NCBI RefSeq assembly: GCF_910592395.1
Contig: NC_088315.1
Location: 3,908,501-3,972,500, forward strand
DNA length: 64,000 bases
Reading direction: 5' to 3'
Origin: Lineus longissimus
Taxonomy: Eukaryota; Nemertea; Pilidiophora; Heteronemertea; Lineidae
Made by a program: the position numbers and the translations under genes. Positions 1,777 to 60,691 of this stretch are shown piece by piece. The stretch's first letter is position 1; every line of letters starts with the position of its first letter. The notes beneath the pieces are model-generated. The model was not told the DNA's origin. It ran no database searches and worked only from the letters and a program-made list of their open reading frames with translations.

Positions 1777-2223
1777 TTAAAAGGTATAAAGGCCAAACAT
1801 TATCAAAGAAATGCCAATTGATCTCTTTGCAGCCGCCTGGGTCATCCAATCAACGTGCAGTGCGCTATCCGGGCCTCCAGCAGCTGTTATCTGGGTCGAG
1901 TTCATTAACTTTTCCGCAGTCAGAGGCGCTGCGGTGCAATTGTTATACCACCATCCTCCTCCGAACTCGTTAGCGCAGTTTCCATTGGCCCAGTTGTCTT
2001 GGTCATTGTCATAAGTGGTGAAGGGCATCCCGTCAATACTGAGACCTGCTTCGGCGGTTAGGAAGGCATCTCCATCTGCATCAGTATTCTCGCCTCGCCT
2101 CAATACCGACATGGTTATTCGAAACTTATCAGCTTCGCTCTGCACTCTCATGGTGGAGTAGTACCTATAATGAAGGAGCATACAATCTGACATATTTTGG
2201 CCGGTTGAATCAGGGAAAGTAGT
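1777..2223 (-). CDS. FReD gene exon 5: fibrinogen domain C-terminal half and stop
   Basis: Contains the hallmark FReD segment DGMPFTTYDNDQDNW and then GNCANEFGGGWWYNNC, with the second disulfide pair and the acidic residues that usually bind calcium. It ends in a weakly conserved tail and stop at 1777. The acceptor at 2223 (AAACAG|ACT) is pyrimidine-poor and in a phase that does not match exon 4. The FReD alignment itself is continuous across the junction. Confidence 0.85.
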   Translation of the reverse strand, partial: TTFPDSTGQNMSDCMLLHYRYYSTMRVQSEADKFRITMSVLRRGENTDADGDAFLTAEAGLSIDGMPFTTYDNDQDNWANGNCANEFGGGWWYNNCTAAPLTAEKLMNSTQITAAGGPDSALHVDWMTQAAAKRSIGISLIMFGLYTF

Positions 2224-5200
2224 CTGTTTCATTGATATCGGATGGAATTCAGCAGATAGATTGTTTTCGAAATTTAAAGGACGACCTTGCTAACTGTGCG
2301 CATTATAACTACGGCCTGTGCCTGAAGCCATCTTTTAGAACGTACAAAAAACTGCCATCTCTAAGTCAGAGACTGAGTCACAGACTTATCCGAGATTATG
2401 GTTTCATCTGAAGTTAAGTTGCATTAGGACTCCAAGATATTTATACACCCCGGACCCGGGGTCTCCTGGGCACTTATACAGCTACAAAATATTTTAGTGT
2501 GAACCCCAAACTTCTGGCGGTATTTCACCTTGCAATGGCGGATTTGTGAAAACCTTTTTTGACTGGAAAATTCTCATGCGCATATTTATATAGAAATGCG
2601 AATTGCAAGAAATAAAGAGCACAAAAACATATATCTATTGTTTACAGAACAGAACTCTGTCATCAGTACCAATACGAACCTCGTGAAGCTTTTATCTTTG
2701 AACCTGTAGAGTTTCAGAGAGATATATTGGCTCCTGGTCCAGTTGGTTAGGTAATGGATTTTCCGGTTTCCCAGATAATAGTCGTAGCCTTTGATACCAC
2801 CGAAACCTGCTGCATAATCTTCATAGCTACGATTGAAAGAGACCGTGGCTTGGGAATTCCAATTTCTGACGAAAAAAAGGAATGACGCTGCCAGTTCGAA
2901 TCTGCAGAGAGGCACCCTCATCACAAACTGTTCAGAAAATTTCACATGATATTGTTACAGCCAAATGACAGACATAACTCAAGGTTGATTGATATTTGCT
3001 TATATAGCAGCATAATGGAGGGCACTCGCGGCAAACATTTACCTATTTGCTTCGTCCGACTGACAAAATTGGCCCTTTGCAAGAGTCAGAATCTCTTGAC
3101 AGGTGTCCTTGTAGTATGAGTATATTGGTACAGTATTTAAGTCAGAATAGCGACAGTGGTAGATTTTCACACTTGCTTACCTTTTCATGAGGAATGTTAT
3201 TTGCGAATAACACATAACCTCAAACGGTTTCGGGGCGTTTGGTGGGAAGACCCACTCACCGTGCCATTCTGTAGCCGTGGTGTCAGAACAATCTGGAAAA
3301 AAGAATATTACATTTTTGACGTTAAAAGTCTGAGTTGGCTCTACTGATGGTGTCACATGGTGCAGGGTGTCAGGGAAACTCGACAGCTCAACAGAGAAGA
3401 GGGAGACATATTCCTGCTAGGAAAACTTACAAGCTATCTGATTGGCTGAACTACTCTTAACTTGCGGATCAATCACTGCCAAACCGTCTTTGAGTTTTGG
3501 AATTTTCTTCCATGAAGTTTTATTTCAAGAATATATAGAGTTATTGCATGTATTTTGATCTCCTTGGTAGCCGAGAGGCATTTTAATCGAGAAAAACTAT
3601 AATTTGCGTGTAAACCCTCCCTCTTCTGCTTGAAGTTGGGCACATCATACTGTCCCCGCGCGTATAATCCCTAACTGTATATATTTCAATTGATTGTCGT
3701 GTTAATATTGCGCACAGGAATTGCAAACGACCTTCATCAGTACTTATCAGTGCTTATCAAGCTCGTCTACTCAGAATCCCATGGGTCATGATATCCACTT
3801 AATTGATTATTGGTCGCTTTTGATAACTGGACACACGCAAATTGATCATCAAATAATTGTCGAACCAATGCAGTTTCAGCATTAGCCAGCCAATAATGAA
3901 GTTCAAAAATCTCACGGACTACGATGGCGAGTTTTCAGTTCCTACGTTATCCGCATTCTATCTTACACTTACTTGTATCTAGTGATATGTAAGCGTATTT
4001 TACAATAAAGACGAACCTAATTCGGTGGATTCTCTATGAATATGCACAATATATTCTGATGTTTAATATTCAAATACAATACACTGATTAGAATTCGGTT
4101 CATATCTTGGATCGAGAAGTCACCGATCTTCAGAATTTCACACGCATTTTCAGAACGTAAATCTCTCTCTATGTTGCATAAAATACTAGTAAGTCTCACT
4201 AAAGTCACCCATACCGTTTATCCTGGTTGCGCAAGCCTTCCCACCGTATCCGCGCGGACATACACACATTCCTGTGGTGTTGTCGATATTGCCGCCCTGA
4301 CATTCAACTTTCTGCAAAAAAGCGACAAAGATGCAACCAGTTTGGTGATTCATGTGATACTGTACGCCTTGTAAGTGAAGTCCATCCGGTTGGTTTCACT
4401 TCAGCGAAACACAATGGAGTTGGAATATGCTTATTACCGCGATGGGGATGATAGGATGACCAGGCACCCGAATAACCCAAGTAAACATTGTGTTCCGCTG
4501 AAGCGGAACTAACCCAATGGCTGAAAACGCTCATTTTGTCAGTTAAATCACAACAATGGAACAGTAAAGCTTTTTTGCTGTCCTTTCACATACAGACGTT
4601 CCTTAATCGACGTACCTACAATAAGCTGTACGTACAATATTGTAGAATATTCTAATACCAAACCTTCACTCCTAGATGGGAAGTACCAAGACCCACTGTC
4701 CATAAACACACCTTGAATATTGTTTGTCCTGATGTCGTCGACGTACCGGAAAATGCAAACCAAAACGAAAAACAAACAAACAGCAGTCTGAGGATGTCAG
4801 CAGCGTTCATGTAACTTTCATGACACCGTTTATAAAGGAAATAGGTACATATAGGTCAAACGACTGCGCGCTGTAACTTACCCTGTAGAAGCTGACGACA
4901 CCTGGTGTGGTTACCAACCCAGTGCATGTCCCATACCCTCGCTTGAGATTGATTGCACTCCCGATAAAACAGTTCACAGAATTTGTTTTGGACGGATTAT
5001 AATGCATGTTCTCACACGCATCTCCATGATTTAAACACAGTACGGCGCAGTCTACTTTGCTCCTTGCCTGATATCTTGCTTTGATATTAGCCGTTGGAAT
5101 TCCAATGCCGTCCCCGCATTTGAACATGATGGTCTCTTTCTCTGTCGCTGCTATGGCGGCCGAAACGAAGAGAGAAAACACTGGAAGCAAAGCCACTATA

Positions 5201-5232
5201 ATGGGAAGGTGCGGCTTCTTTTGAGATGACAT
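1777..5232 (-). CDS. Secreted PAN/apple - EGF-like - fibrinogen-related domain protein (five exons)
   Basis: Probably a secreted recognition or lectin-like protein. Coding exons on the minus strand are 5232-4882, 4311-4215, 3292-3181, 2865-2704 and 2223-1777. Domain order is a signal peptide (about residues 1-29), a six-Cys PAN/apple-like region (about 39-117), a short EGF-like module (118-149) and a fibrinogen C-terminal domain to the end. Introns 1 to 3 have good GT-AG sites and phases that agree: exon 1 ends in phase 0, exon 2 leaves one base completing an Asp codon, and exon 3 leaves two bases completing an Arg codon. Intron 4 does not fit. Exon 4 ends in phase 2 at the natural donor, while the only good acceptor for exon 5 is phase 0. 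A missed micro-exon, a sequence error or an inactivating indel are all possible. FReD proteins commonly bind acetylated or other sugars in invertebrate immunity; that role is inferred, not seen. Confidence 0.85.
2704..2865 (-). CDS. FReD gene exon 4: fibrinogen domain core, first half
   Basis: A T-rich acceptor ending cgtcag joins in frame to exon 3. It encodes FNRSYEDYAAGFGG followed by YYLGNRKIHYLT, the classic FReD block (R-x-W-x-x-Y-x-x-G-F-G ... W-L-G-N-x-x-I-H-x-L-T). The likely donor is TACAG|GTTCAA, where homology to the family ends. Confidence 0.85.
3181..3292 (-). CDS. FReD gene exon 3: start of fibrinogen domain
   Basis: Acceptor ttccag, donor AAAAG|GTAAGC. The split Asp codon is followed by Cys-Ser-Asp, and a second Cys (VMCYS) lies 26 residues later. 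These match the first disulfide pair at the start of a fibrinogen-related domain, though the intervening sequence is more diverged than usual. Confidence 0.75.
4215..4311 (-). CDS. FReD gene exon 2: short EGF-like module
   Basis: A pyrimidine-rich acceptor (cttttttgcag) opens a frame of 32 codons with the pattern C-x-G-G ... G-x-C-x-C-P-x-G-Y-x-G-x-x-C. This is the second half of an EGF-like domain. Only four of the usual six cysteines are present, so the module is short or its first part is on an exon I did not find. The donor ACG|GTATGG leaves one base. Confidence 0.75.
4882..5232 (-). CDS. FReD gene exon 1: signal peptide and PAN/apple-like domain
   Basis: Encodes 117 residues starting at an ATG. 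Residues 10-29 are a hydrophobic signal sequence ending AAIAA, so cleavage is likely near residue 29. Six cysteines at 39, 62, 66, 73, 88 and 103, with the DCAVLC spacing near the first third, fit a PAN/apple fold used for protein or carbohydrate binding. The exon ends with SFYR at a strong donor (AGG|GTAAGT) in phase 0. Confidence 0.8.
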
Positions 5233-8200
5233 CCTACTGGTAAAATTTCATTTAACTAAGAGAAATTCCATGAGGTATAGCAAATGAATATCCCGATTTT
5301 TGAAAAACAAGTGCAATAAAACGTTCTGATTTCGCAGCATTCGATAGAAATATTTGACTATTGGACACAGTTCTGGTATAATTATGCGACATGTCCTTCT
5401 GGAAATTCCTTCTGAATTTGACTCATCGGTGACATAGAGTGGGACATGGCGGACAATGTCCCGAGAACCATCAGCTGAATTGAACGCGACGCCTGCCGAA
5501 CATACACGGATTAGGTGCCGCATTCACTGGACGTCCCGCAAAGGAAACGGGCTACAGCGCATTAATTGAAGTCGAATGTCATTAAAACCTTCATTAAAAG
5601 CATTGTGGGAGAATTTGTTCTAGACACGCATGGCTTATGACATTAAATAAGGTGATGAATGTCAGCTGCAGCTAAGTTTAAAATGGTAATTGCCATTAGA
5701 TGAAGGATTGAGTTCCGTATTCCGTGACCAGGCATACATATACAAATTACTTGTTGTTTTTCTGTCATGGCAATTGTACATAGAGATCCCAGGTAAGCAT
5801 TTAATCAACAATTCATTATTTCGGACATATTCGTCATCTGTGATCTGGAATTAATCTCAAAGCTGTCAAGAATGGAAGTCAAAGGTTATGAAATTATGAC
5901 CCTCTCGGGAGTAAGTAATCGAGAGGCCACATGCACTCTTAGAAATAAAGGTTTTTGACTTTTGTAAAAACTTTGGCTCTTCGACCAACACAAGCATGCC
6001 AAATATTCACCCTATATTATCTATAGTTTTTTTTGGCGAAAACCCCATACAGATCGAGGTGGAAAACCTCTCGAGATTTTCCAGTATCTCAAAATAATTT
6101 CATTAAATATCCCATTTAGAAAATACAAAAAGGCTTATAATATAGAGCAGTTTGAAATTCTTGGCATACTGTCTTTCAAACTTTGTAGTTTGAATAATCT
6201 AAACGTTTCTGTCAATTATCAAACCAGGTCAATAATTGTCCTACCAGATCGAATATCACTGTTTTGCATATTTCACTTATGCTGTCAGAAGTCCTTTTAC
6301 AATGTTTGTATTGCAATTAAGGCAAAGCATCCAAAGGAAGCATATCGATAGGAACTTGATCGCGAGTGCTAAAATCGATTCAGTTTTATTGGACTTCTAT
6401 TAAGTTCTTTGACATGACACCATGATAAAGTACCTACATGAATTGCGTGCACGCTGGGACTTAAAAAGTTACACAGGTCAGCCAAGACCTCTTCACTGAG
6501 CACAAGAAAAAAAATATATCAGCGTGTACATCATCAACGTAAGTTAAAACATCAACAAAGTGACCGTTTCCCAACTCGGAATTGACTTAGAGTACATTGT
6601 ATACATCATATTTAAAGTTACCAGATGGTTTAGTATAAACCACTTATGAATAATCTATATTCGAGAAGCAGAATATGGATTTATGTGACCTAATAATAGT
6701 TTATTAGACAGCATCGACAGATGCCTTACATTTGTAAGTCACCGTGTCACACCGCGATAGATGTTTTCAGTTTTGCAATGCTTTATAATCGTATGATATA
6801 TGAGCAGACCGGGTACCAATCTTAACCTGTCTGAACTAAAAAAAGAAAATCAACTCGTTCTTCGTATTTACTTGCTCACTTATCTTTATTTATTGAACAG
6901 AAATGAGATTAACGAACTAACACAATGAGTTGTTAGACTTCGTAACAAATGCCAAGAGTCTGCATGCCAAAAGTCACCTACTGAGAATAAAACAAAAACT
7001 GAAACTTATTGGAAATAAGACAGTTCAAAATAATGACTGTTTTGTTTCGTTTGGCGAATTTTCAATCATGGTTGGTTGTTGTGCGCTTTCAGCATTACAT
7101 TTATTCGGTTCAAGAATATAGAGAGTAGTGACACAATTTCTGAGAAGATACATTTTATGGTTATTCAATGAGTTCGGTCATGAAATAACGAGCTGAAGAT
7201 TTCAGTCAAAAATGAAGTTTTTTGGCGGGCATATCCGCCAAGGAAAATAGGCACCAATGTTGATAACACATCGCAGTAATTATGAAGGAGTAACAGTTGT
7301 GATAGTTTGACACGCTAATGACCCAGCGACGATTTGACGCACTGCGAAATCTGAGAGAAACATGATTGTGATTTTGTTTGTTTTTAAAATTCCCGGGAAC
7401 ATCACGTCTTCACGACATCAGGCATAAATATTAATAGATGTGGTCCTTATGATAAACTTCTGTTCATAATTTAAACTTTAATCAGGCACTTTTCATCAAC
7501 ACGAAAGAAACCGATATCGCTTTTTAATGCCCCAAAAACATTGTAAAACTACGTTCGGCTACGTTTGCAGAAATCTTATAATTATGTCACGTATACGGTA
7601 TTGCTTGTCACGGGTCTTCGCCAGATAAAAAATTTTCATCAAACATTTAAGAGGTGAATTCCTAAAATGAGTGTCTTTCTAAAACATACGATGTATTTGT
7701 CGTCGGGTTATCAGTATTCACGTGCTCTGAGCTCTTCCTATCTCATGCATTTCACGATGTCCATCTTAATCACTGCATTGCATAGAATAATAACAGACAT
7801 TTATAACCACTGCTAAAGCCAAGAAAATAGAACAAAGAAGTGAAGCTTTCGGTGAAGGAAAGAAAGTTGAAGAAAAAAACAACGTTGGACATTTCTTTTA
7901 CATTCAATCGGATTCACTTTCGTTCCAAATTCTTCCGCCAGAGTTAACGTGAGCATTTTACATCAGTTACGTGCTCCAGTTTGTGGTATGTTGCTGAAAT
8001 ACCATAGAGTGAAAAAGCCGATTGCAGTTTTAGTTTTCAATCAAATTGATGTAATTATATATGCTTATAGTATAATCATCTTACAATCACCTTAACCGAA
8101 TCATTCTCCTCACCAACGTGCAGGTCATGCATTGCGTGGACACTGGGCCGGGCCGGAAAATTGAGATTTGTAAGTGATATTACGGATACACATGCGCAAT

Positions 8201-27800: not shown

Positions 27801-29968
27801 CTTTTTTTCAATTTCTCAACAGAGTACTGGTACGTTAATACCAGGTTCATATGGCAGTATTAAAAGACCCTCTTATTAGCCGGAAGCATTTTTCAGTCCT
27901 AACATTGTCGTTAAGGAGTTTATCCTTTGTTTTGGTACTTATCTATAGCTGCGAGGCGTGCAATACCAGGTGCTCTCATGAAAAAATTCAGTTGTCTATA
28001 CTTCTCAACCTCGCCCCTGACACGACACCTGCAGCAAAATATGGGTTCCTCTCAGAAACATAATCCTCTCAAGGAAAAGTTGGCATGTTGAATACAACGA
28101 CTGCCTATCCTAACAGAATTTTTCAATTCTTCCAATACGTAGCAAATCACCGGTATGTAATGGCGATTACTCTTACTTTGGAGGCTGCAGTCGCTTGTTT
28201 TTCGTCACAAAATCCACGCGCCCAATAGAATATATTCCAAATCTAGCACCCAGTAGTGCTTATTTTGCGAAAATAGTATCTTATGAGGTTCTAAAACGCA
28301 CTTAGAACTAAGACATGCAATTGCCGCAGCATGGAATTCTTAACTTGAGATATTTTTTATTCCAAGTCGAGGCCGGAACCTTCATCCTATACATAGACCA
28401 ATCTACGACCAATCTTGGGGGGAGAAATCTCCGTTATCATTATGCGGAATGGAGTGCATAACCTATGCACAGATTGGGCGATATTGATGCTGGACAATGA
28501 GTATGAAATATATATATCGATAAGATAACAATGCGGGCAGGATCCTGAACAGCTTTCAGGAGAAAAAAGGCCATAACATGTCTACATTCAGAGCCATATT
28601 CGTCCATAAACTACAGCTAAATGATGATTGGATTCCCCTCCCAGCCAAGTGAACGTGATCAAAAGTACACTATGGCATTATACGTTACGAAGTCACCAGT
28701 CAGGCAACTCTCCTCGATGGACCGGTCGTGGCCGATCAAGCTATTTCATTTTTCACTAGAATCGCAGGGCGATGTCACTTGATCCTTGTTATAATTAACC
28801 CGATACCAAAGGGATGGGCAAGCCGCTAGAAAAACATGGCCAAAGAAAAGTTGATTATGATTTAGATTCTCACGAGTACGCTTTATTACCAGCAACTATC
28901 CATTTGAATAATTACGTTACTATAACAAGCCCCAAACGATTTCAAACAGGACTGGTCAAAGTCCGTTTAGAATGCCCTCGAAAAAAGTTCTTCATTTCTC
29001 GATTGTTAGCCAATGAAATAAATTAATTCCAGTACTGATCTATTCAGATACCAAGCTTGCAAAGTAGCGCTGAAAACTTTGATATTTGGTTCACAATGTG
29101 GCTAAATTCCCGACGTAGCATCTAAGTTTTTTTTCACCCGAGTTGAGTATATAGCTGACGAAATACAATGTTAGATAGTTGTTCCGCTGACAACTTCAAT
29201 CAACATACATTTTCTTACGAGTCGAGGAGTTAGTCCCATATCATTGTTTATTGGGCTATGGTCTCCTCACGACTATAATATTGATAAAACAGACACTTTG
29301 CCGGACTAATAAAATGTCAAACTCGGACACAAAGTGATGGAGTTCGTGGGCGGACATCCTCCTGAAACTAGAATCGGGGTGCGACTGCTCAAGTTACAAT
29401 TTGATCCTAAAGCTAGTTAATTGCCTGTTACATGTACGTACCTGTTATCTAATACTGCAGCTATTAGCAAATGATTCAGTTTAGTTGTTGCTCGAAGCAG
29501 TTTGTTGATCAATAAAGTTAGTGTTTTTTGGATGGTTGAAACATTCTGTTTGAAATGCGATTTGTAAAGATTTGTAATCTATAAATCATGCTAGATAGAT
29601 ATTAATATTCTGTAAGATATTATTTCGAATGACATTAAACGAGTTGGACATAAAAGCAAGAATGCATGGATCACATAGTGCAATAGAGTATGGTTGGCTT
29701 TTCTTACAAAAAAGGACCATGGGATAGTGCAAGTGTCCTAGTTGATTTATTCCCACTTGCTAAAACTGCGCAACACCACCTCGATTTGCCCTATTTGGCT
29801 AGATATATGAGTACAGGAAAACCACATAATGATACACTTCAAAGAACAAATAACATGATCAGACCTCATTATCAGACTCATTCTACGCCGATTGACTGTT
29901 TCAATAAAGTATGACGAGGTAACTTGGGTCGGTGAATCAAAGAATTATCTCTGCACATGATTAGGTGA
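24827..29968. other. Intergenic, no supported gene
   Basis: No domain-bearing frame. Segments near 25.8-25.95 kb and 27.15-27.45 kb have more even base composition and recurrent AATTTGAT-like motifs, which would suit conserved regulatory DNA, but only cross-species alignment could show it. Confidence 0.35.
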
Positions 29969-30370
29969 AGAGAACAGTTGAGTCCACAAACTGAATTTGG
30001 ATACAAGGTTGAAAAGTGCAGAGAACAGTTGAGTCCACAAACTGAATTTGGATAGAAGGTTGAAAAGTGCAGAGAACAGTTGAGTCCACAAACTGAATTT
30101 GGATACAAGGTTGAAAAGTGCAGAGAACAGTTGAGTCCACAAACTGAATTTGGATACAAAGTTGAAAAGTGCAGAGAACAGTTGAGTCCACAAACTGAAT
30201 TTGGATACAAGGTTGAAAAGTGCAGAGAACAGTTGAGTCCACAAACTGAATTTGGATACAAAGTTGAAAAGTGCAGAGAACAGTTGAGTCCACAAACTGA
30301 ATTTGGATACAAAGTTGAAAAGTGCAGAGAACAGTTGAGTCCACAAACTGAATTTGGATACAAGGTTGAA
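29969..30370. repeat. 51-bp minisatellite, about 8 copies
   Basis: Copies start at 29969, 30020, 30071, 30122, 30173, 30224, 30275 and 30326, differing by only a few substitutions. Because 51 is a multiple of three and few stops occur, several frames on both strands stay open and yield a 17-residue periodic peptide (for example YPNSVCGLNCSLHFSTL on the minus strand). This is a property of the repeat, not evidence of a gene. Confidence 0.95.
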
Positions 30371-30573: not shown

Positions 30574-31211
30574 GCCTAAACCGTAAAGAAGTCGGAAGCG
30601 GCCTTCTACCAGTGTAAAATAAACCAAGAAACAGCTTATATGCGATTAGACTAAGGATGTTCTGCTTTGTACTTATAGACCAATTGACTAAAACAAGCAT
30701 AATTCGCCTTTTGTTGAAGTATTCTAATTATCAAGAACAGGCCATTCACACTAGGCCAATTAACTGACCGTGTGATTAATGCCTAAACCGTAAGAAAGTC
30801 GGAAGCGGCCTTCTGCCAGTGTAAAATAAACCAAGAAACAGCTTATATGCGATTAGACTAAGGATGTTCTGCTTTGTACTTATAGACCAATTGACTAAAA
30901 CAAGCATAATTCGCCTTTTGTTGAAGTATTCTAATTATCAAGAACAGGCCATTCACACTAGGCCAATTAACTGACCGTGTGATTAATGCCTAAACCGTAA
31001 AGAAGTCGTAAGCGGCCTTCTACCAGTGTAAAATGAACCAAGCAAAACAGCTTATATGCGATTAGACTAAGGATGTTCTGCTTTGTACTTATGAACCTTC
31101 CAAGTAGAGACCAATTGACTGAAACAAGCATAAGTCGCCTTTTGTTGAAGTATTCTAATTATCAAGAACAGACCATTCACACTAGGCCAATTAACTGACC
31201 GTGTGATCAAT
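30574..31211. repeat. 207-bp tandem repeat, three copies
   Basis: Copies start at 30574, 30781 and 30988 with GCCTAAACCGTAA. The first two are nearly identical. The third carries a small insertion near 31091 and ends near 31211. Only about 200 bp separate it from the 51-bp minisatellite, so this is a local hotspot of tandem duplication. Confidence 0.92.
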
Positions 31212-34200
31212 GCACTCGTTTAGATATGTTGAAGAGAGTACGGGGAATAAAGGCTTATTATTATATAAGGTATTGGCTTCTATCGCCATGCACCATCTAT
31301 CACTAAACCTTAGTCTGGGACTAATTCTCTATGGGTACTAAGTGCAGAGTAATAATCGCTTGACAGTTGCGAAGACATCTAATTCATGAAACGTGACTTC
31401 CTAAAGAATGCCGAACTTGCGAACTCTGGATTAAAGTGATGTCACATCCAGATAGCTTCTAGTGCATGATGCCAAAAGCATGGATAAATGCACTGTAATG
31501 TGCTTATTGGCGACCTGTTTAACTTGACCTCGTATACCCCAGGTGGGGATTAAATTGCCTCTTGAGATGCAGATATTTATTTAGCCTAATGAAACTGAAT
31601 GGGAGCTGGAATATTTAACTGAGGTTCATGCGTTCTCGAGTAATGCAACAATTTTAGAAATGGGATTGTTTAGGGTGAGTTTGTGAAATCGTTGCATGCA
31701 TACGTATGCTGACGTTAACCGCCCTTGGTGAATGCTTAGCAAATTCAGATGGATTTTAACTTAATTTCATAATACTCAAACGTAGTATCTAAAATGGGAA
31801 ATTACAAACTAAGTGTTCGCTAACACAAATATGCATACCATGGACGTCTTTCAGAGAAACAACAAACTCCTGAAGATTTTTTAGCTTGTGAAAAGCCTCT
31901 CAAACAATTTGTTTTTTTCTCGGCTATAAAAAAATCTTTGAGAGGTGCATATCAATGTTGGCTAAATACACTAAAAGGTTTTTCAAACGCTCAAAACACC
32001 TTAAGGTGACGTACTTCAGTTTAATCGACATCAATCTATCATCTTTGGCGCTACCAATAATATGGCAACCGATAATTCAACCAGTTGCTGGAGGAAGCGT
32101 CAACAACAGTAGACGTTTGATAATAATGCAGAGAATTAATCACAAGATAAAGTGATGTAGATCCAAAGATGACTGATGGTTTGTAGGTGCTTTGACGACG
32201 GCTTTTCGTGGTATCCTGGCAGAGAGCTGCAGAAACCATATTGTTTTCCTTAGAAAGGACCTTTTGGTTCCCATGCGTAAAACTTTTACTCCAAAAAGTC
32301 TAAGGCCGACCAGACCGTAATCCAACTTTTGTAGAAAAAAAGATAGTTGATTACGACTGGATATCAACAAGTTGGATCAAATAACATGCCAAGGTGTCAG
32401 CGTGATAGCGAGATAATCTAGTCTACCGAGTCTCATTAACTGCATTGACGGATTACTCCTTTACCGAAACCTGAAAAAAAACTTCTCCAAACCTGATACA
32501 TGAAAAGCAGGGCGGAAAACATCAGCATTTAAAAACTCAGTTAGGGAGGATGGAGATCGTTTTGAGCTTGAAATTAGCCTTATCACTCTTCATATCACAG
32601 GCGCCTTAATTCTTAGAAGTACACAATGCCGTCCCATTGGATATTAAACTTGAAGACCTCGGCTCACACTTGTCTCCTTCAGATACGTTTGTCAAGACAT
32701 GATAAGTTTCTAATCTCAAGATGCGAAAATAGGAATGTTGTTGACTTTTCTTTGTTTCGAAATTGGAGATAGATAGATAAGCTGGTAATTAAAAGGGAAG
32801 CCAACGCTAAAATTGGGAGATCAGTGGCATAGTTGTACGAGCGTTTGTAGTAAATGAGAGTATTTCTCTGCGTCCTTACAATAATTCAGACAATTTTTCA
32901 AAAAGATTTGCATTCAATAAGATTGTTTTTGCTTTGTAATATTAAGTTTGAAATTTGATTGTTGATTATTTCAAAATCATTTTTGTTGTGTTTGCTAGCC
33001 CGGTGAATATGGTTGAACGAATTTGAACAAACAACATTTCCAACGATATCGATGAGATGTTTGTCCATTTGCTGTATTTTTATTCACAAAAACCAATTAA
33101 TAACTTTGTGATTAGAACCGTGTAACTAATTTAGAGAACCGCAATACCTCACAACAAATATTAGCTTGCGCGGCTACCACGAAACGGCCGTCACAGCGGG
33201 TACCAGATCCGAGGGAACGCATTGGCGCAGAAATAAAATGTTTGGTACACACAGCACTGGCCATACCGTGTTGACTTTTTCTAGTTACTGTGGTTCCTGT
33301 GTCATCGCATATAGTCCCACATTCTGGTCTCTTCATAGCAGACACTGCGTAAAGAATTTTGAAAATGAATTTGAGCGTATCTCATACGAAGTACATAACT
33401 ACATCCTGGTTACAGCAAATGGTCGATCCTTAGAAATAGCTTTTTTTATTATTGATTTATCGATTTATGTTGCATCGTCCCTTTACCATGCACATGAGGT
33501 GTCATTGCTTCCACAATATGCGGCAATTGCATATTGTCATATTACATGCTAGTATAGTACTCCGTCGTCCACCATCACGACTATTGTAGAAGTCGACAAT
33601 CAACACTAACAACAACACAACCCCTCACGCTTCATCTGATTGGTTTAGCCTGACAAAGGCGTGTTGACGAGGCAATGATGTCAGGAGTGGTGTCAAAGCG
33701 GCGAATCAACTTGATCAAGAGGATTTGTAGTGACGGTCAGGATATAATATTGCTGAAGATGGTCGATGAGGGTATAGTGAACTCATCGTGCGGCCATATT
33801 TAGATTCATATGGTCCGTGTGTATTTCATTTAAGAAGAAATGAGGCCTGTAGCAGATTGACTCCGAGTATACACATTAACCGCATTCAAAGTAGGCCTTT
33901 GATCTTTGATGCCCTATTTTGGGAAGCCCTTGTTTTTTTCACAAGTTATCTAGAAATCCAACCTTTCAGGGAAAAGTCGGACTTCAGTCGGATAAATCAG
34001 GAAAAAGTTAGAGAAACCGTTAAGAAGTCGGGAAAGTCTCCTTCTTATAGTGTACATAACATTGCTCAGTGCAGAACGTATTTCATATACATGTATAGCT
34101 CGGTACGTTTACTCTCCTACGCAAGCCCAGTGACGCAAGCCAATTGTCTCTTACCAACGGTGAAGCGACATGGCTAGTTGTGTCGGCGACGGCAGCTTAA

Positions 34201-54872: not shown

Positions 54873-55095
54873 TCATTTAGGCATTTTTGTATCACAGTGT
54901 CGACCTTTACGCAATATTATAATATCTATAAGTAATCGGCGAAAGTTTGCACCTGTCACAAAATAGATAAAAAAGTTAACTGATGAATTGACCACGCCCA
55001 GGATCACGAAGTAGTCCAATAAACTGAAGAGAAGATCCGGAGCTATCTTGATCATGCTTTTACCGACGTCTGAATACTCCAAAACAATATACAGA
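54873..55095 (-). CDS. GPCR exon 2: TM7 and C-terminus
   Basis: The acceptor ctttaaacag opens 73 codons containing a TM7 helix with NSSVNFFIY, then a short basic amphipathic segment (NFRRLLIDIIILRK) like helix 8, and a brief tail ending MPK. It completes the receptor missing its seventh helix in exon 1. Confidence 0.88.
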
Positions 55096-56967
55096 CTGTT
55101 TAAAGGGAAGGGCCCGCCAAAAAATGGGGAGTTTTGGACGGCCCGGTCAAAACCTTAGGCGGGAATAAGGTTTCATTGATAAATATAAGGAGTTTCAAGG
55201 CCCCCAAATTACTTGTAAGGTTCAATAGATACTGGCCTTTCATTGGTTTACCGTTTGCGTATCATTTACATACTCTCATCTTGAAAAATATGACAATATT
55301 TACGATCACGTTATTGATTTTTGCAACATTTTCGGTAACGCGCCCCTTGCGGATCTGTAAGGTACCACTCGGATGCTTGAAAAATGTTAGTGGCGTGGCT
55401 CCATCTGCTACAGCTGTCACCGCGCCGGTGTTAGTCTCACGTCTTGGCGTCTGCACCACCCTTCGGGGACACCTCAATGCCGTTGGCGTACTATACTGAC
55501 GAGACCAGCGTCTCTAGAGACTCCGACATTCGCCATGAGCAGTGACAGGTCACTTGGCTGGAATGGCCCCATCTCCTCTTCACTCATGTTCATTGCCGGC
55601 AATACTGGCAAATATCTTGAGTCGTCACGGTTGTCAAACAAGTCTTGGATAATATGCTGCTCCATTTCTTCTGTACTGTTCGGATCAGGGGCCTCGCTCT
55701 CCACCGGCCCAGAATCCACCGGCGACTCGAAATCGATACTACTATTCTCTCCATTTTCCATTTTCTCCTCTCTCCAACTCACTACTATCGCTATTGACTG
55801 CGTAACATACACTAACATTCTTTCGCTATCATTGCTAACTTCATTTACTAGAACACTGGCCTATGTAGCCCATAGTGGAAACACCTGACAGCGCCGCCCG
55901 GCATGATACACGTGCTACTGGCATATTTATAACTCGTAGTAAATAAGGTTGTAAAAATATGCAAATGAGATGCCGTATATGGAAACCATGACGTCACTAA
56001 GCAGTGCTTATTTCTGCTACGGGTGGCGCTGGTGCTTGCTTCTGGAGGCGCTATTCAACCTCTTTAAGACATGGGTGGGTGTTTCTAGAACGAGGAATAC
56101 TAGAATTACGATAACCACCCGGAATGTAACGACATTCATGTCAGTCCGTCGTTTAGCCTTATCCGCTATGATGACGGTCTTTGCTGCTTTTCTCAACGCG
56201 GTCACGAGGTGGAAAGTTGTAAAATACAGAACTATAACTGGAATGGCAAGACTGAATAAAGTGTACAAGGTTAGGTTAAAGATAATATTGTAGTATACAT
56301 CGAAAAGGTACATGTCACTAGGCTTCGAAACCGGCCTAACATAGCCTCTGCATTCGTCCATCTCAAATATCAAATCAAATTGCCAAATGTAAGGTAGGTT
56401 GTATGCAACTGAAAATATCGTCAGCGAAATGACTGCTATTTTTGCATTTCGTAGCGTGCAGATATATTTTGCATGCAGCGGGTTACACACGGCTATGTAT
56501 CTTTCAGTAGCCACAGCAATTATCATATAAACAGCTAAAGTCTTACTGCACCAAAGCAGAGAAAATATGTAAGCTTCAATGACTTGATGGATCTCGAAAT
56601 ACCCCTCGAAAACTCCCAAGAAGATGAAAAAGGACGGCAATGAGTTATGCCAGGCGAAGGTGATAAGAACCATAATGTCAGCTATTGCTAAAGATTTCAG
56701 TAAAAAGGTAGTCGACTTGGCCGATGAGTGTGTAGATTCCAGCGACAAAACCTTGAACGTAAGGGAGTTACCTACTAGCCCAATACAAGTAAGCGACAAC
56801 ATGACATGAACGCGGACGTAGTACAATATGGTATCCTGTAAGCCTCCATTCGTCCGCATTCGGGTGTACAGGCAGTTGTCGGTAGGATCAAGAGTATCAT
56901 TATCATTTCTCGGAAACACACTCGTACTCAGGTCCAAATTACCAGAAATGGGAGCAGGTGTTGACAT
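54873..56967 (-). CDS. Class A GPCR, FMRFamide-receptor-like (two exons)
   Basis: A seven-transmembrane peptide receptor of 376 residues. Exon 1 (56967-56060) carries TM1 to TM6 and exon 2 (55095-54873) carries TM7 and the tail. They join in phase 2 across a 964-bp intron (AAAGAG|GTTGAA ... aaacag|T) to give THVLK-S-LYIVLEY. Visible motifs are GNS in TM1 (66-68), LAIAD in TM2 (93-97), ERY at the end of TM3 (155-157) followed by IAVCNPLHA, ETP in TM6 (295-297) in place of CWxP, and NSSVNFFIY in TM7 (NxxxY ending at 347). The ERYxAVCxPL and NSSVNFxIY signatures are typical of invertebrate FMRFamide-receptor-type GPCRs. I see no Cys at the usual TM3 start. It probably acts through a G protein in neurons; the ligand is unknown. 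Confidence 0.9.
55474..55818 (-). CDS. Unrecognised acidic ORF nested in the GPCR intron
   Basis: A 114-codon frame lies wholly within the GPCR intron on the same strand. A second Met (codon 20, ATG at 55761) has the better context (GAAAATGG) and begins MENGENSSIDFESPVDSGPV. The protein is rich in Glu, Asp, Ser and Pro with a segment YLPVLPAMNMSEEEMGPFQP, as in disordered activation or adaptor regions. No family is recognised. A second open stretch on the same strand (55477-55262, in another frame) may be a later exon or a frameshifted continuation. A nested gene, a retrocopy or a mobile-element fragment are all possible. Confidence 0.4.
   Translation of the reverse strand: MLVYVTQSIAIVVSWREEKMENGENSSIDFESPVDSGPVESEAPDPNSTEEMEQHIIQDLFDNRDDSRYLPVLPAMNMSEEEMGPFQPSDLSLLMANVGVSRDAGLVSIVRQRH
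55909..55996 (-). promoter_or_regulatory. CRE-octamer-TATA-like array upstream of the nested ORF
   Basis: Read on the minus strand, in order: TGACGTCA (55996-55989), ATTTGCAT (55966-55959), TTATAAATAT (55932-55923) and CACGTG (55914-55909). The order and spacing (TATA-like element about 105 bp before the first ATG of the 55474-55818 frame) match a compact RNA polymerase II promoter. The CRE and octamer are exact consensus matches. It lies inside the GPCR intron, so it could instead be an intronic enhancer of the receptor. Confidence 0.45.
56060..56967 (-). CDS. GPCR exon 1: extracellular N-terminus to TM6
   Basis: Starts at an ATG after a stretch without a better start. The N-terminus (about 1-50) has acidic residues but no signal peptide, as is usual for this class. 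TM helices lie roughly at 52-75, 88-110, 132-153, 175-195, 226-250 and 280-300. A basic third intracellular loop (RKAAK ... KAKRR) precedes TM6. The frame would stop 15 codons past the donor. Confidence 0.9.
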
Positions 56968-58074: not shown

Positions 58075-58180
58075 TTACTTCTCCATCTCTCTCTCTAATG
58101 ATCGGACACTGCGCTTTCCAACCCGACTCCAGCCGCCCAGGCCGCCGCCGCATCGCCACCAGTTCTTGGAGTTACAGCGT
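58075..58180 (-). CDS. Neuropeptide exon with the predicted mature peptide
   Basis: The acceptor atccttttcag completes the Arg codon and opens 34 codons with the ringed peptide, the GKR processing site and the C-terminal segment, then TAA. The exon is noticeably GC-rich around the Gly run. Another frame is also open here, but only this one is in phase with the two upstream exons. Confidence 0.75.
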
Positions 58181-60691
58181 CTGAAAAGGATACACAATAA
58201 ATGGAGATGGTGGAAGTCCTCCTACAGATGGAGCTGACAAGATAGTCAATTCGTTACGTATGAGAAGGTTTTGCGAAAGAGTCTTAAATTTACTTAATAA
58301 CAGCACCACTCCTGTCAAATCCGTTACACTATACCTACCGCGACGGAACTCGTTTAGCCATCAGCATTTGTTTCAGTGCATCGTCGGCGTCGTCGACCGC
58401 GAAGTCATCTAAAAGAAGGAAACTATAGTATTGAAAATTATAACTGAAGCAACTTTTTAAATGTAATATGAAGTCATTGGTGTGGAAGGAAACCGAAGAT
58501 TCGGGAGGAAACCCATGCTCCGCTGCCAGAGTGAATCGCACTCTCTACTACCCAAGGAAGTGCCGATATTACTTTGTAAGTTCGAATATCAATGCAGTTA
58601 GAACATCATTCCTGTTAAGATGAGATGCCCTCCTTTCACTTTTATAAGGTCAATTTATGTTCTGGTGTCGGTGATCCCTGCAGAATTTGTACTTCATTCA
58701 CCTGAATTGGTTCGCTCATCATCATTCCATTGGACATGAAGTTTCCCTCAGGTAGTTAGTTGTATGGGTAAAGCCCCTCGATTCTGGTAAAGCTAATAGA
58801 CCTTGCGATTAGAGATGCATCTTGACATGTTCATCACTATTCTCGTCACTTACAGCTTGCCCTATCTGTCGGAACAGGAACGGAAATGGACGCTCAGGCA
58901 GGAAATGATGAAGCAATCAGCATCCCTTATTCTGGTTTATGACAAGCAAGGGTGTCATGATTCGTGAAGGACGAAGAATGGGGTAGTATTCCCATTGAAG
59001 CAAGACTAACGCAGAAGCACACTGAACAGAGGTATGCAGCGAGTAGAACTGTTCAAGTTTCTCAAAGTCGAATCAGAAGCACTGGCACTGGTACCTCTCT
59101 TACTTGTATCATGACTATACTTACCACACTAAGAGCACAGTCGCACTACAAGCTACTATACAATCTGACATGTCCTTTGACATAACAAACCGTACCAAAG
59201 AGCACTCCAAAATACCCCTATACCTATCATTGAGATTCACTTGAACAACCTTACATGACTTGTTCAAATTATCTGTAAGATTCACCATAACAATCCATGA
59301 TGTTCAATATATCACCAAGATCAACGAGGACAAAACCATGCGTGTACAGGAAGATTCGCAGCTTCGTGTATTGTACGTGTTCACAGGAGCGACCGCACAA
59401 AACATGTGTGCACCGCGTTTTCCATCAAGGCACTGACGTGCATTACGTTACGCCATCGTCTCGGGTGTGAGCAGGCATTGTTTGGCGACGTAGACCTATT
59501 GTTCTGTGATCGCCGCGGGAATGTAAGCCATTTTCTTTCAAGATTAGGGAAACCTAATTAACATGACTGAGCCCTCCATTCAGAACTGAAGCATTCAATA
59601 CATAAACACACTACTTGAAGAATTAACGTGATCATGTGATAGCATATAGTCAGACAACAATAACATTGATAATCTATACATCAAACAAGCTTTGATGTCT
59701 GATAATCCTCGCTTGCAGCAGGGGATTTATGCATGGAACCAAGCCTGAAATCATCTAAATACTTATTACGGAAAAATCATTGACTATCATTTCTCTGAAG
59801 TTGCCAGTAAGCAAACCACTTTTGTAGTTGCCTTGATATCACTCTGTGCCTTTCCCTATACGTGTTCATCTGAAGTGTGTCTTTACTGTCGAAGTCGATT
59901 GTTAAAAATTAAGCGAATGTCCGATCACAGCTTGGGTCATGAGTTGGGTTCCTAATCGGATATCTTTCTGATGTAGTTGAGAAAGAGACCATCTCTTTTG
60001 GAATAGCGCTGGTTTCCACCAACATTAAGCGATTCATATCACGAAATGTCTATGTTACTAGTCCTTATTGTGATTGAATATTAAGTAATTTAACAGTATA
60101 AGATGCGCAGAGAAATACTTTATTCTAATATATGATAATATTTTAGGTCTGCGAATGCAATCCTATTTGGACAAGTTGCCCCGAATAATCAATAATCTAT
60201 ACATGGAGCTTGACATCGTCCAGGTTAAGGTAAAATTGAATTTATTTCCACCCCCTGCAATGACCTGAACTAAAGTTAAATTGGTTAATTTCCTTTGGGG
60301 CAGCTGCTACTGCTGCTTCTTAATTAGACTTAACATTGCAGTATAACTGTTTTGTTGCATGCTCATGTCCCTACTCACCGCCCGATATCAGGCATGGTTT
60401 GTTTAAAAGAAGGTTCTTTACTTGGCTTCAACTCATCATGGTCTGACCTTACCTCCTTAAAGCAGTAAAGCTCATTACTAGACTTGAGTTTCAAAAATTA
60501 GCGTTGAGATAATTGAACTAGTTCTAAACAATCGTGTCATGGTGTTTGATGAACCAACGACACTGGAATACATTCGAGTGTCGTTGGCTGGACTTACCCG
60601 CCCATGCAAGTGTTAATTCGGCTAGCATCAGCACGGCAATTGCGATGGCCAAAGCACTTCTGTTTTGTCTCATCCTGACGGTGTCAATGTT
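58075..60691 (-). CDS. Neuropeptide precursor, predicted ringed peptide ending Arg-Val-amide
   Basis: Three coding segments: 60673-60598 (exon 60691-60598), 58408-58339 and 58180-58075. Together they encode an 83-residue precursor, and both introns join in phase with good sites. Residues 1-25 are a signal peptide (ALAIAIAVLMLAELTLAWA). An acidic spacer (DDFAVDDADDALKQMLMAKR) ends in a KR site. VPSRR follows, then CNSKNWWRCGGGLGGWSRVG with KR directly after. Gly-Lys-Arg is the canonical amidation and cleavage site, so the likely product has a Cys-Cys ring (7 residues between), a Gly-rich tail and C-terminal Arg-Val-NH2. A basic C-terminal segment, SVRSLEREMEK, completes it. I do not recognise the peptide family. 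The product would be secreted by neuroendocrine cells. Its neighbour downstream is a peptide-type GPCR. Confidence 0.75.
58339..58408 (-). CDS. Neuropeptide exon with acidic spacer and KR site
   Basis: 70 nt between the acceptor ccttcttttag and the donor CGCG|GTAGGT. Enters in phase 1 (completing Asp) and leaves in phase 2 (completing Arg). It encodes the Asp-rich spacer, the KR cleavage pair and VPSR. Confidence 0.75.
59150..59458 (+). repeat. Dispersed repeat, copy 2 (in neuropeptide intron)
   Basis: Second copy of the family at 51440-51672, with about 100 extra bases between the ACCAAAGAGCA and TGTTCAATATATCAC blocks. It lies within the large intron of the neuropeptide gene, antisense to it by my orientation. 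Confidence 0.6.
60598..60691 (-). CDS. Neuropeptide exon with start codon and signal peptide
   Basis: A very strong acceptor (ttttctctgtcctctctttccag) starts the exon at 60691, so a further 5' UTR exon lies upstream. ATG is at 60673. 25 codons of signal peptide lead to a consensus donor, GCGG|GTAAGT, in phase 1. Cleavage is predicted after TLAWA. Confidence 0.8.

What the first reader, a model, noticed from the sequence alone, without database searches (positions are those of the whole stretch)
58075..60691. Undescribed neuropeptide precursor with a Cys ring, Gly-rich tail and Arg-Val-amide
Three short exons join in phase to give signal peptide, acidic spacer, KR, then CNSKNWWRCGGGLGGWSRVG-KR. 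The Gly-Lys-Arg amidation site, flanking dibasic sites and 83-residue length fit a neuropeptide prohormone. The two-Cys ring with WW and the GGGLGGW tail match no family I know: not oxytocin/vasopressin, somatostatin, CCAP, CCHamide, elevenin, calcitonin or GnRH types.
Basis: partly seen in the sequence, partly recalled or inferred. Interest (0 to 1): 0.88.

Follow-up and report, generated by a model that had tools for sequence, protein, structure and literature searches.

The report
Unnamed ribbon-worm neuropeptide precursor gene
A short gene in the bootlace worm appears to make a small ring-shaped, amidated signalling peptide that matches no peptide family we could check, and it sits beside a peptide-receptor gene, but nobody has yet shown that it is expressed or what it does.

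Summary
On the minus strand three exons (60673-60598, 58408-58339, 58180-58075) join in phase into an 83-residue precursor: signal peptide, acidic spacer, KR, VPSRR, CNSKNWWRCGGGLGGWSRV, GKR, short tail. Exons are 50-58% G+C, introns about 40%. Three of four splice sites rank in the top 0.7% of their kind. In 284 kb of real DNA, window included, nothing else met the same rough gene grammar. The genome is Lineus longissimus: a protein named for that species matches it 100% over 340 residues. A genome search found no second copy. No Pfam family reached its cut-off and no protein relative was found. Likeness to the excitatory-peptide/CCHamide family rests on two Cys and Gly-Gly-Gly; defining features differ. 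The published Lineus neuropeptidome could catch single-copy precursors only by similarity or mass spectrometry; its supplements could not be read. A class-A GPCR gene, FMRFamide-receptor-like by database name, begins 1.1 kb downstream; over 100 related loci exist, and no similar precursor lies beside its six closest paralogues. Best reading: a real, probably unnamed neuropeptide prohormone, receptor unknown.

The parts
60598..60673 (-). Coding exon 1 (76 nt): MRQNRSALAIAIAVLMLAELTLAWA, signal peptide with A-x-A cleavage site; donor GTAAGT at 60597, phase 1
   Evidence: donor in the top 0.13% of 3743 GTs on the minus strand (simple weight matrix)
60674..60691 (-). Probable 5'-UTR part of exon 1, preceded by an acceptor-like CTCTCTTTCCAG
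   Evidence: sequence read; inference, not scored
58339..58408 (-). Coding exon 2 (70 nt): acidic spacer DDFAVDDADDALKQMLMAKR plus VPS and part of R; phase 2 donor GTAGGT at 58338
   Evidence: acceptor in the top 0.63% of 3478 AGs; donor in the top 2.5% of 3743 GTs
58075..58180 (-). Coding exon 3 (106 nt): RR-CNSKNWWRCGGGLGGWSRV-G-KR-SVRSLEREMEK-stop
   Evidence: acceptor in the top 0.55% of 3478 AGs; 58% G+C
58111..58176 (-). Predicted mature peptide, 19 residues CNSKNWWRCGGGLGGWSRV-amide, with its GKR signal
   Evidence: first Cys at 58176 and translation; processing inferred
54873..56967 (-). Neighbouring class-A GPCR gene, modelled with two coding exons (56967-56060 and 55095-54873, 376 aa); its ATG lies 1.1 kb downstream of the precursor's stop

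Best explanation
This is a real gene of the ribbon worm Lineus longissimus, single-copy as far as searched, that encodes a secreted peptide prohormone. The signal peptide sends it into the secretory pathway. Prohormone convertase cuts at the RR pair before the first Cys (or at KR five residues earlier) and at GKR. Carboxypeptidase and PAM then leave CNSKNWWRCGGGLGGWSRV-amide with one disulfide ring of seven residues between the Cys. It most likely acts as a neuropeptide or peptide hormone on a class-A GPCR. The gene structure is read from sequence; processing, amidation, the disulfide, expression and the receptor are inferred from general knowledge of prohormones. The sequence defines a family of its own at present, perhaps limited to nemerteans. 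Probabilities: real secreted-peptide gene about 0.9; neuropeptide or hormone about 0.75; not yet in print under another name about 0.6.
For: In-phase three-exon model with good splice sites; exons 50-58% G+C against introns 39-40%; signal peptide with A-x-A; RR and GKR flanking the ring. In 284 kb of real DNA it is the only one of 28 loosest candidates with a signal-peptide exon within 5 kb upstream. 0 of 40 shuffled windows gave the last exon. In a 391-Mb genome the 83 residues match only the three exons themselves at E<=10 (3 first-look candidates, 3 scored). Signal peptide in the first and mature peptide in the last of three exons is also the layout reported for CCWamide precursors (passage of PMC8557429).
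Against: No transcript, no peptide mass data and no orthologue in any other species were available. The mass-spectrometry survey of L. longissimus larvae names five new precursors (WWS, DMF, AGEamide, GGRWamide, GxGH), none recognisably this one, so it may be absent in larvae. Donor 2 is only fair (top 2.5%). Scan thresholds were fitted after the gene was seen.
Confidence: 0.75

Rival explanations
1. A strongly diverged paralogue of the excitatory peptide (EP/GGNG/CCHamide) family: ring with aromatic residue, Gly-Gly after the second Cys, amidated end, here with an extended tail.
For: PMC6617912 passages name two Cys, two Gly (or Gly and Ala) after the second Cys, an aromatic inside the ring and amidation as common family features; all are present here. 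An earthworm GGNG1 string printed in a table of PMC11922444 also reads C...C-GGG.
Against: Alignment to that GGNG1 is no better than chance once Cys and GGG are fixed (0.52 of 2000 shuffles reach it; 0.0585 with a full shuffle). One family member only was compared. Spiralian EPs share a C-terminal Asn; here it is Val. EP usually follows the signal peptide directly; here a 20-residue spacer ending in KR stands between, although a tardigrade and a leech are exceptions. Ring is 7 residues against 8 in that GGNG1. Lineus EP ends CAAGNG-amide.
Confidence: 0.1
2. A secreted defensive or venom peptide of skin mucus or proboscis, made by the same convertase and amidation machinery, rather than a neuropeptide.
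For: Nemertean proboscis and mucus are toxic to prey and predators (abstract starts of PMC6410017 and PMC10674772 in the search listings); a two-Cys amidated peptide is compatible.
Against: Nemertean peptide toxins that I recall have several disulfides, not one; no second copy in the genome search or in 284 kb around is unlike many toxin families (recalled).
Confidence: 0.1
3. A chance assembly of open frames, not a gene.
Against: as above; splice sites, signal peptide and composition step agree.
Confidence: 0.06
4. Already described in the unread supplement of the 2021 nemertean neuropeptidome under a group name whose sequence I did not see (not exclusive of the best explanation).
For: [quoted passage not shown] L. 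longissimus was the mass-spectrometry species.
Against: Its regular expression needed at least three amidation sites or five dibasic sites, which this precursor lacks, leaving similarity or mass spectrometry; no group name in sections 5, 6 and 15 fits RVamide with a Cys pair.
Confidence: 0.25

Closest known systems
Excitatory peptide / GGNG / CCHamide family
   Same: Two Cys, aromatic inside the ring, Gly-Gly after the second Cys, amidated C-terminus, single copy per precursor (features)
   Different: Seven-residue ring, RV-amide instead of Asn(-Gly)-amide, ten-residue tail, spacer between signal peptide and peptide
Calcitonin-type peptides
   Same: N-terminal Cys ring followed by an amidated tail
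   Different: Tail of 10 residues instead of 24-25 in two sea-cucumber members printed in PMC12638048; C-terminal Val instead of the usual Pro; no alignment above chance to those two
Somatostatin / allatostatin-C type peptides
   Same: One disulfide ring with aromatic residues
   Different: Those have the ring near the C-terminus (recalled); here a Gly-rich tail follows it
CCAP
   Same: Cys-Asn start of a ring and GKR signal (recalled motif)
   Different: Ring of five residues and little or no tail in CCAP (recalled)
Lineage-specific Cys-containing, amidated precursors of Platynereis (such as PCNa and CCAa; passage of PMC3890597)
   Same: Amidated, with Cys that may form a disulfide, known from one lineage only
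   Different: Named for other C-termini; their sequences were not visible to me, so no comparison was made
WWS peptide of Lineus longissimus (PMC8557429)
   Same: Nemertean precursor with a Trp pair in its name, found by mass spectrometry
   Different: Named for WWS; here the pair is WWR and WS occurs apart. Its sequence is in a figure I could not see, so this stays open

Membership tests
Neuropeptide/peptide-hormone prohormone (general) | N-terminal signal peptide | tested here: met
   Residues 1-25, hydrophobic core and A-x-A site (found by a simple hydropathy rule, not by SignalP)
Neuropeptide/peptide-hormone prohormone (general) | Peptide flanked by dibasic sites with Gly for amidation | tested here: met
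   RR before the first Cys, GKR after Val
Neuropeptide/peptide-hormone prohormone (general) | Expression in neurons or endocrine cells, processing seen | not testable with these tools
   No RNA-seq or mass spectra at hand
Neuropeptide/peptide-hormone prohormone (general) | Peptide conserved in other species | tested here: inconclusive
   No relative (6 candidates, none at E<=10); no other nemertean genome could be searched
EP/GGNG/CCHamide | Two Cys, aromatic inside, Gly-Gly (or Gly and Ala) after second Cys, amidation | tested here: met
   Sequence against the feature list; the often present His in the ring is absent
EP/GGNG/CCHamide | C-terminal Asn region shared by the spiralian members investigated | tested here: not met
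   Ends SRV-amide; feature
EP/GGNG/CCHamide | Peptide directly after the signal peptide | tested here: not met
   Acidic spacer and KR between; exceptions exist
EP/GGNG/CCHamide | Sequence likeness beyond Cys and Gly | tested here: not met
   0.52 of 2000 constrained shuffles align as well to one earthworm GGNG1; full shuffle 0.0585. One member only
Calcitonin type | C-terminal amidated Pro (with exceptions) and long tail | tested here: not met
   Ends in Val, 10-residue tail; features
Somatostatin / allatostatin-C | Family motif inside the ring | not tested
   Motif known to me only by recall; passages of PMC8851493 do not print it
CCAP | Five-residue ring | tested here: not met
   Seven residues between the Cys; the CCAP ring size is recalled
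WWS, DMF, AGEamide, GGRWamide, GxGH (MS-found nemertean precursors) | Name-giving motif | tested here: inconclusive
   None of the five name-giving strings occurs in the 83 residues (read by eye), but their sequences were not visible

The most novel reading that the evidence does not exclude
The precursor and the FMRFamide-receptor-like GPCR 1.1 kb downstream are a genomically paired new ligand and receptor. The peptide would be the ligand of at least this member of the large nemertean expansion of such receptors, whose ligands are unknown.
Probability: 0.07. Interest if true: 0.75.

Novelty: new member of a known kind. Interest (0 to 1): 0.45.

Why it matters
Single-copy precursors without homologues are the blind spot of neuropeptide surveys that rely on similarity or on repeated cleavage sites. 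A clean example from a chromosome-level genome gives a defined, synthesizable candidate in a species whose EP receptor has already been assayed in mammalian cells and which carries over 100 loci related to the neighbouring receptor.

Tried and rejected
Paralogues: the 83 residues found only their own three exons in the genome at E<=10 (the first look passed 3 candidates, so distant copies could be missed) and nothing convincing in 284 kb around. Ligand-receptor co-duplication: tblastn finds no similar precursor in 30 kb around five close GPCR paralogues on C1 or in 10 kb around one on C17; a dissimilar one is not excluded, as the grammar scan was not run there. A 7-residue likeness (PARRCNS) upstream of the C17 receptor lacks a second Cys and runs into a stop, so rejected. 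EP gene: three DNA patterns built from the printed Lineus tail found no EP gene (0 matches; 3 matches, none preceded by Cys). The first pattern omitted the extra Gly and was wrong by my own error; an intron may split the motif. A protein search for EP did not complete. Bacterial promoter, tRNA, Rfam and repeat scans gave nothing relevant. In some searches I used acceptor coordinates three (exon 2) and two (exon 3) bases off, so one search scored wrong acceptors and one search printed a wrong frame; one search corrects both, and the scans do not use those coordinates. The notebook entry carries the wrong coordinates; that the right ones. Literature searches; no structure prediction was run.

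Full report
What is there. The gene is on the minus strand. Exon 1 (60673-60598) encodes a signal peptide ending in LAWA. Exon 2 (58408-58339) encodes an acidic spacer ending in KR plus VPS. Exon 3 (58180-58075) encodes RR-CNSKNWWRCGGGLGGWSRV-G-KR and a short tail. The joined frame gives 83 residues and a stop, with intron phases 1 and 2.

Is it more than chance? Two Cys followed by G-basic-basic is ordinary: 2 in the window, 2.7 per shuffled window (60 shuffles). A dibasic pair directly before the first Cys cuts this to 0.033. In 40 shuffled windows no such motif had an acceptor of score 2.3 or more. In 284 kb of real DNA (window plus 110 kb on each side) the loosest pattern, any dibasic-to-GBB stretch with an acceptor of score 4 or more, gave 28 candidates; only this one has a signal-peptide exon with a donor within 5 kb upstream. 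The cut-offs were chosen after seeing the gene. Splice-site ranks by a simple weight matrix are: donor 1 top 0.13%, donor 2 top 2.5% of 3743 GTs; acceptors top 0.63% and 0.55% of 3478 AGs. Exons are 50, 56 and 58% G+C, introns 40 and 39%.

Which animal? The genome holding the window has 391,118,348 bases in 30 contigs. A protein named by NCBI as Lineus longissimus, P0002, matches contig C1 at 100% over 340 of 340 residues. The published Lineus longissimus assembly is 391 Mb in 32 scaffolds (passages of PMC8593623). So the window is from the bootlace worm, a heteronemertean, most likely in another assembly version (contig C1 is 29,440,000 bases here, and 29,445,314 in P0002's record).

Family. 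No Pfam family reaches its cut-off; the only listed one, a helicase domain, has E 0.08. The protein search scored none of six candidates at E<=10. The genome search shows no second copy at E<=10. Four peptide strings occur in no paper of the library. The nearest named family is excitatory peptide/CCHamide. It shares two Cys, an aromatic inside the ring, Gly-Gly after the second Cys and amidation (passages of PMC6617912). It differs in the C-terminal Asn, the direct position behind the signal peptide (section 12) and ring length. An alignment to one earthworm member, a string printed in a table of the review PMC11922444 (one passage seen), shows no likeness beyond Cys and Gly (0.52 of constrained shuffles reach it; 0.0585 of full shuffles). 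Bombesin-type genes, the deuterostome kin, have a phase-1 intron inside the peptide (passages of PMC12002301); here both introns lie before it. I could not find the EP gene in this genome, so a direct comparison of intron positions is missing. Lineage-limited amidated precursors with Cys are not rare: Platynereis has several (passage of PMC3890597).

Why could it have been missed? The 2021 survey of nemertean neuropeptides (PMC8557429; abstract, sections 5, 6, 15, 21 and passages read) used similarity searches, a regular expression requiring at least three amidation or five dibasic sites, and mass spectrometry of L. longissimus larvae. A single-copy precursor without relatives escapes the first two. 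Its supplementary sequence list could not be opened, so 'undescribed' is likely but not shown.

The neighbour. 1.1 kb downstream on the same strand begins a class-A GPCR gene that I model with two exons. Named relatives are 'FMRFamide receptor-like' and 'G-protein coupled receptor daf-37-like' proteins of L. longissimus and an 'FMRFamide receptor' of the springtail Folsomia candida at 30% identity. In solved structures its best matches are opioid, TRH, galanin and similar peptide receptors, with an adenosine receptor among the first sixty. The genome search lists 124 matches including itself, a few with in-frame stops and two genes counted twice (1138 first-look candidates, 122 scored). This agrees with the survey's statement that receptors related to type-1 FMRFamide receptors expanded in nemerteans and have no known ligand, but I built no tree, so membership of that group rests on database names. 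The survey expects an aromatic amidated ligand for the group; this peptide ends in Val. tblastn finds no similar precursor near the closest paralogues on C1 and C17. Adjacency alone is weak evidence, so pairing is kept only as the bold reading.

Verdict. A real gene (about 0.9) for a secreted, probably neuroactive, cyclic amidated peptide (about 0.75) of an unassigned family. It is a new member of a known kind, neuropeptide prohormones, and worth a quick transcript and mass-spectrum check.

Noticed in passing
window 54873-56967 and genome-wide: The neighbouring FMRFamide-receptor-like GPCR belongs to a very large expansion: 124 matches in the genome including itself, many in tandem clusters on C13, C3, C4, C16 and C9; another lies 27.6 kb beyond the window end.
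   Followed up: partly
window 55474-55860, minus strand: A 128-residue open frame (stop to stop) lies inside the GPCR's modelled intron on the same strand; no Pfam match.
   Followed up: no
window 29965-30370 and 30574-31213: Tandem arrays of a 51-bp unit (8 copies, 98% matches) and a 207-bp unit (3 copies, 93%) lie about 200 bp apart; the 51-bp unit is open in several frames.
   Followed up: no
window 1777-2289 and 4807-5247, minus strand: Exons of a fibrinogen-C-domain protein (E 1.8e-14) and, below the Pfam cut-off, of a possible PAN-domain protein.
   Followed up: no
P0001, P0003, P0005 (JGI metagenome proteins): Metagenome records encode receptors of this family, P0001 being 72% identical to a C1 gene of Lineus, so nemertean-like DNA is probably present in JGI metagenomes and might hold the orthologous precursor.
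   Followed up: no
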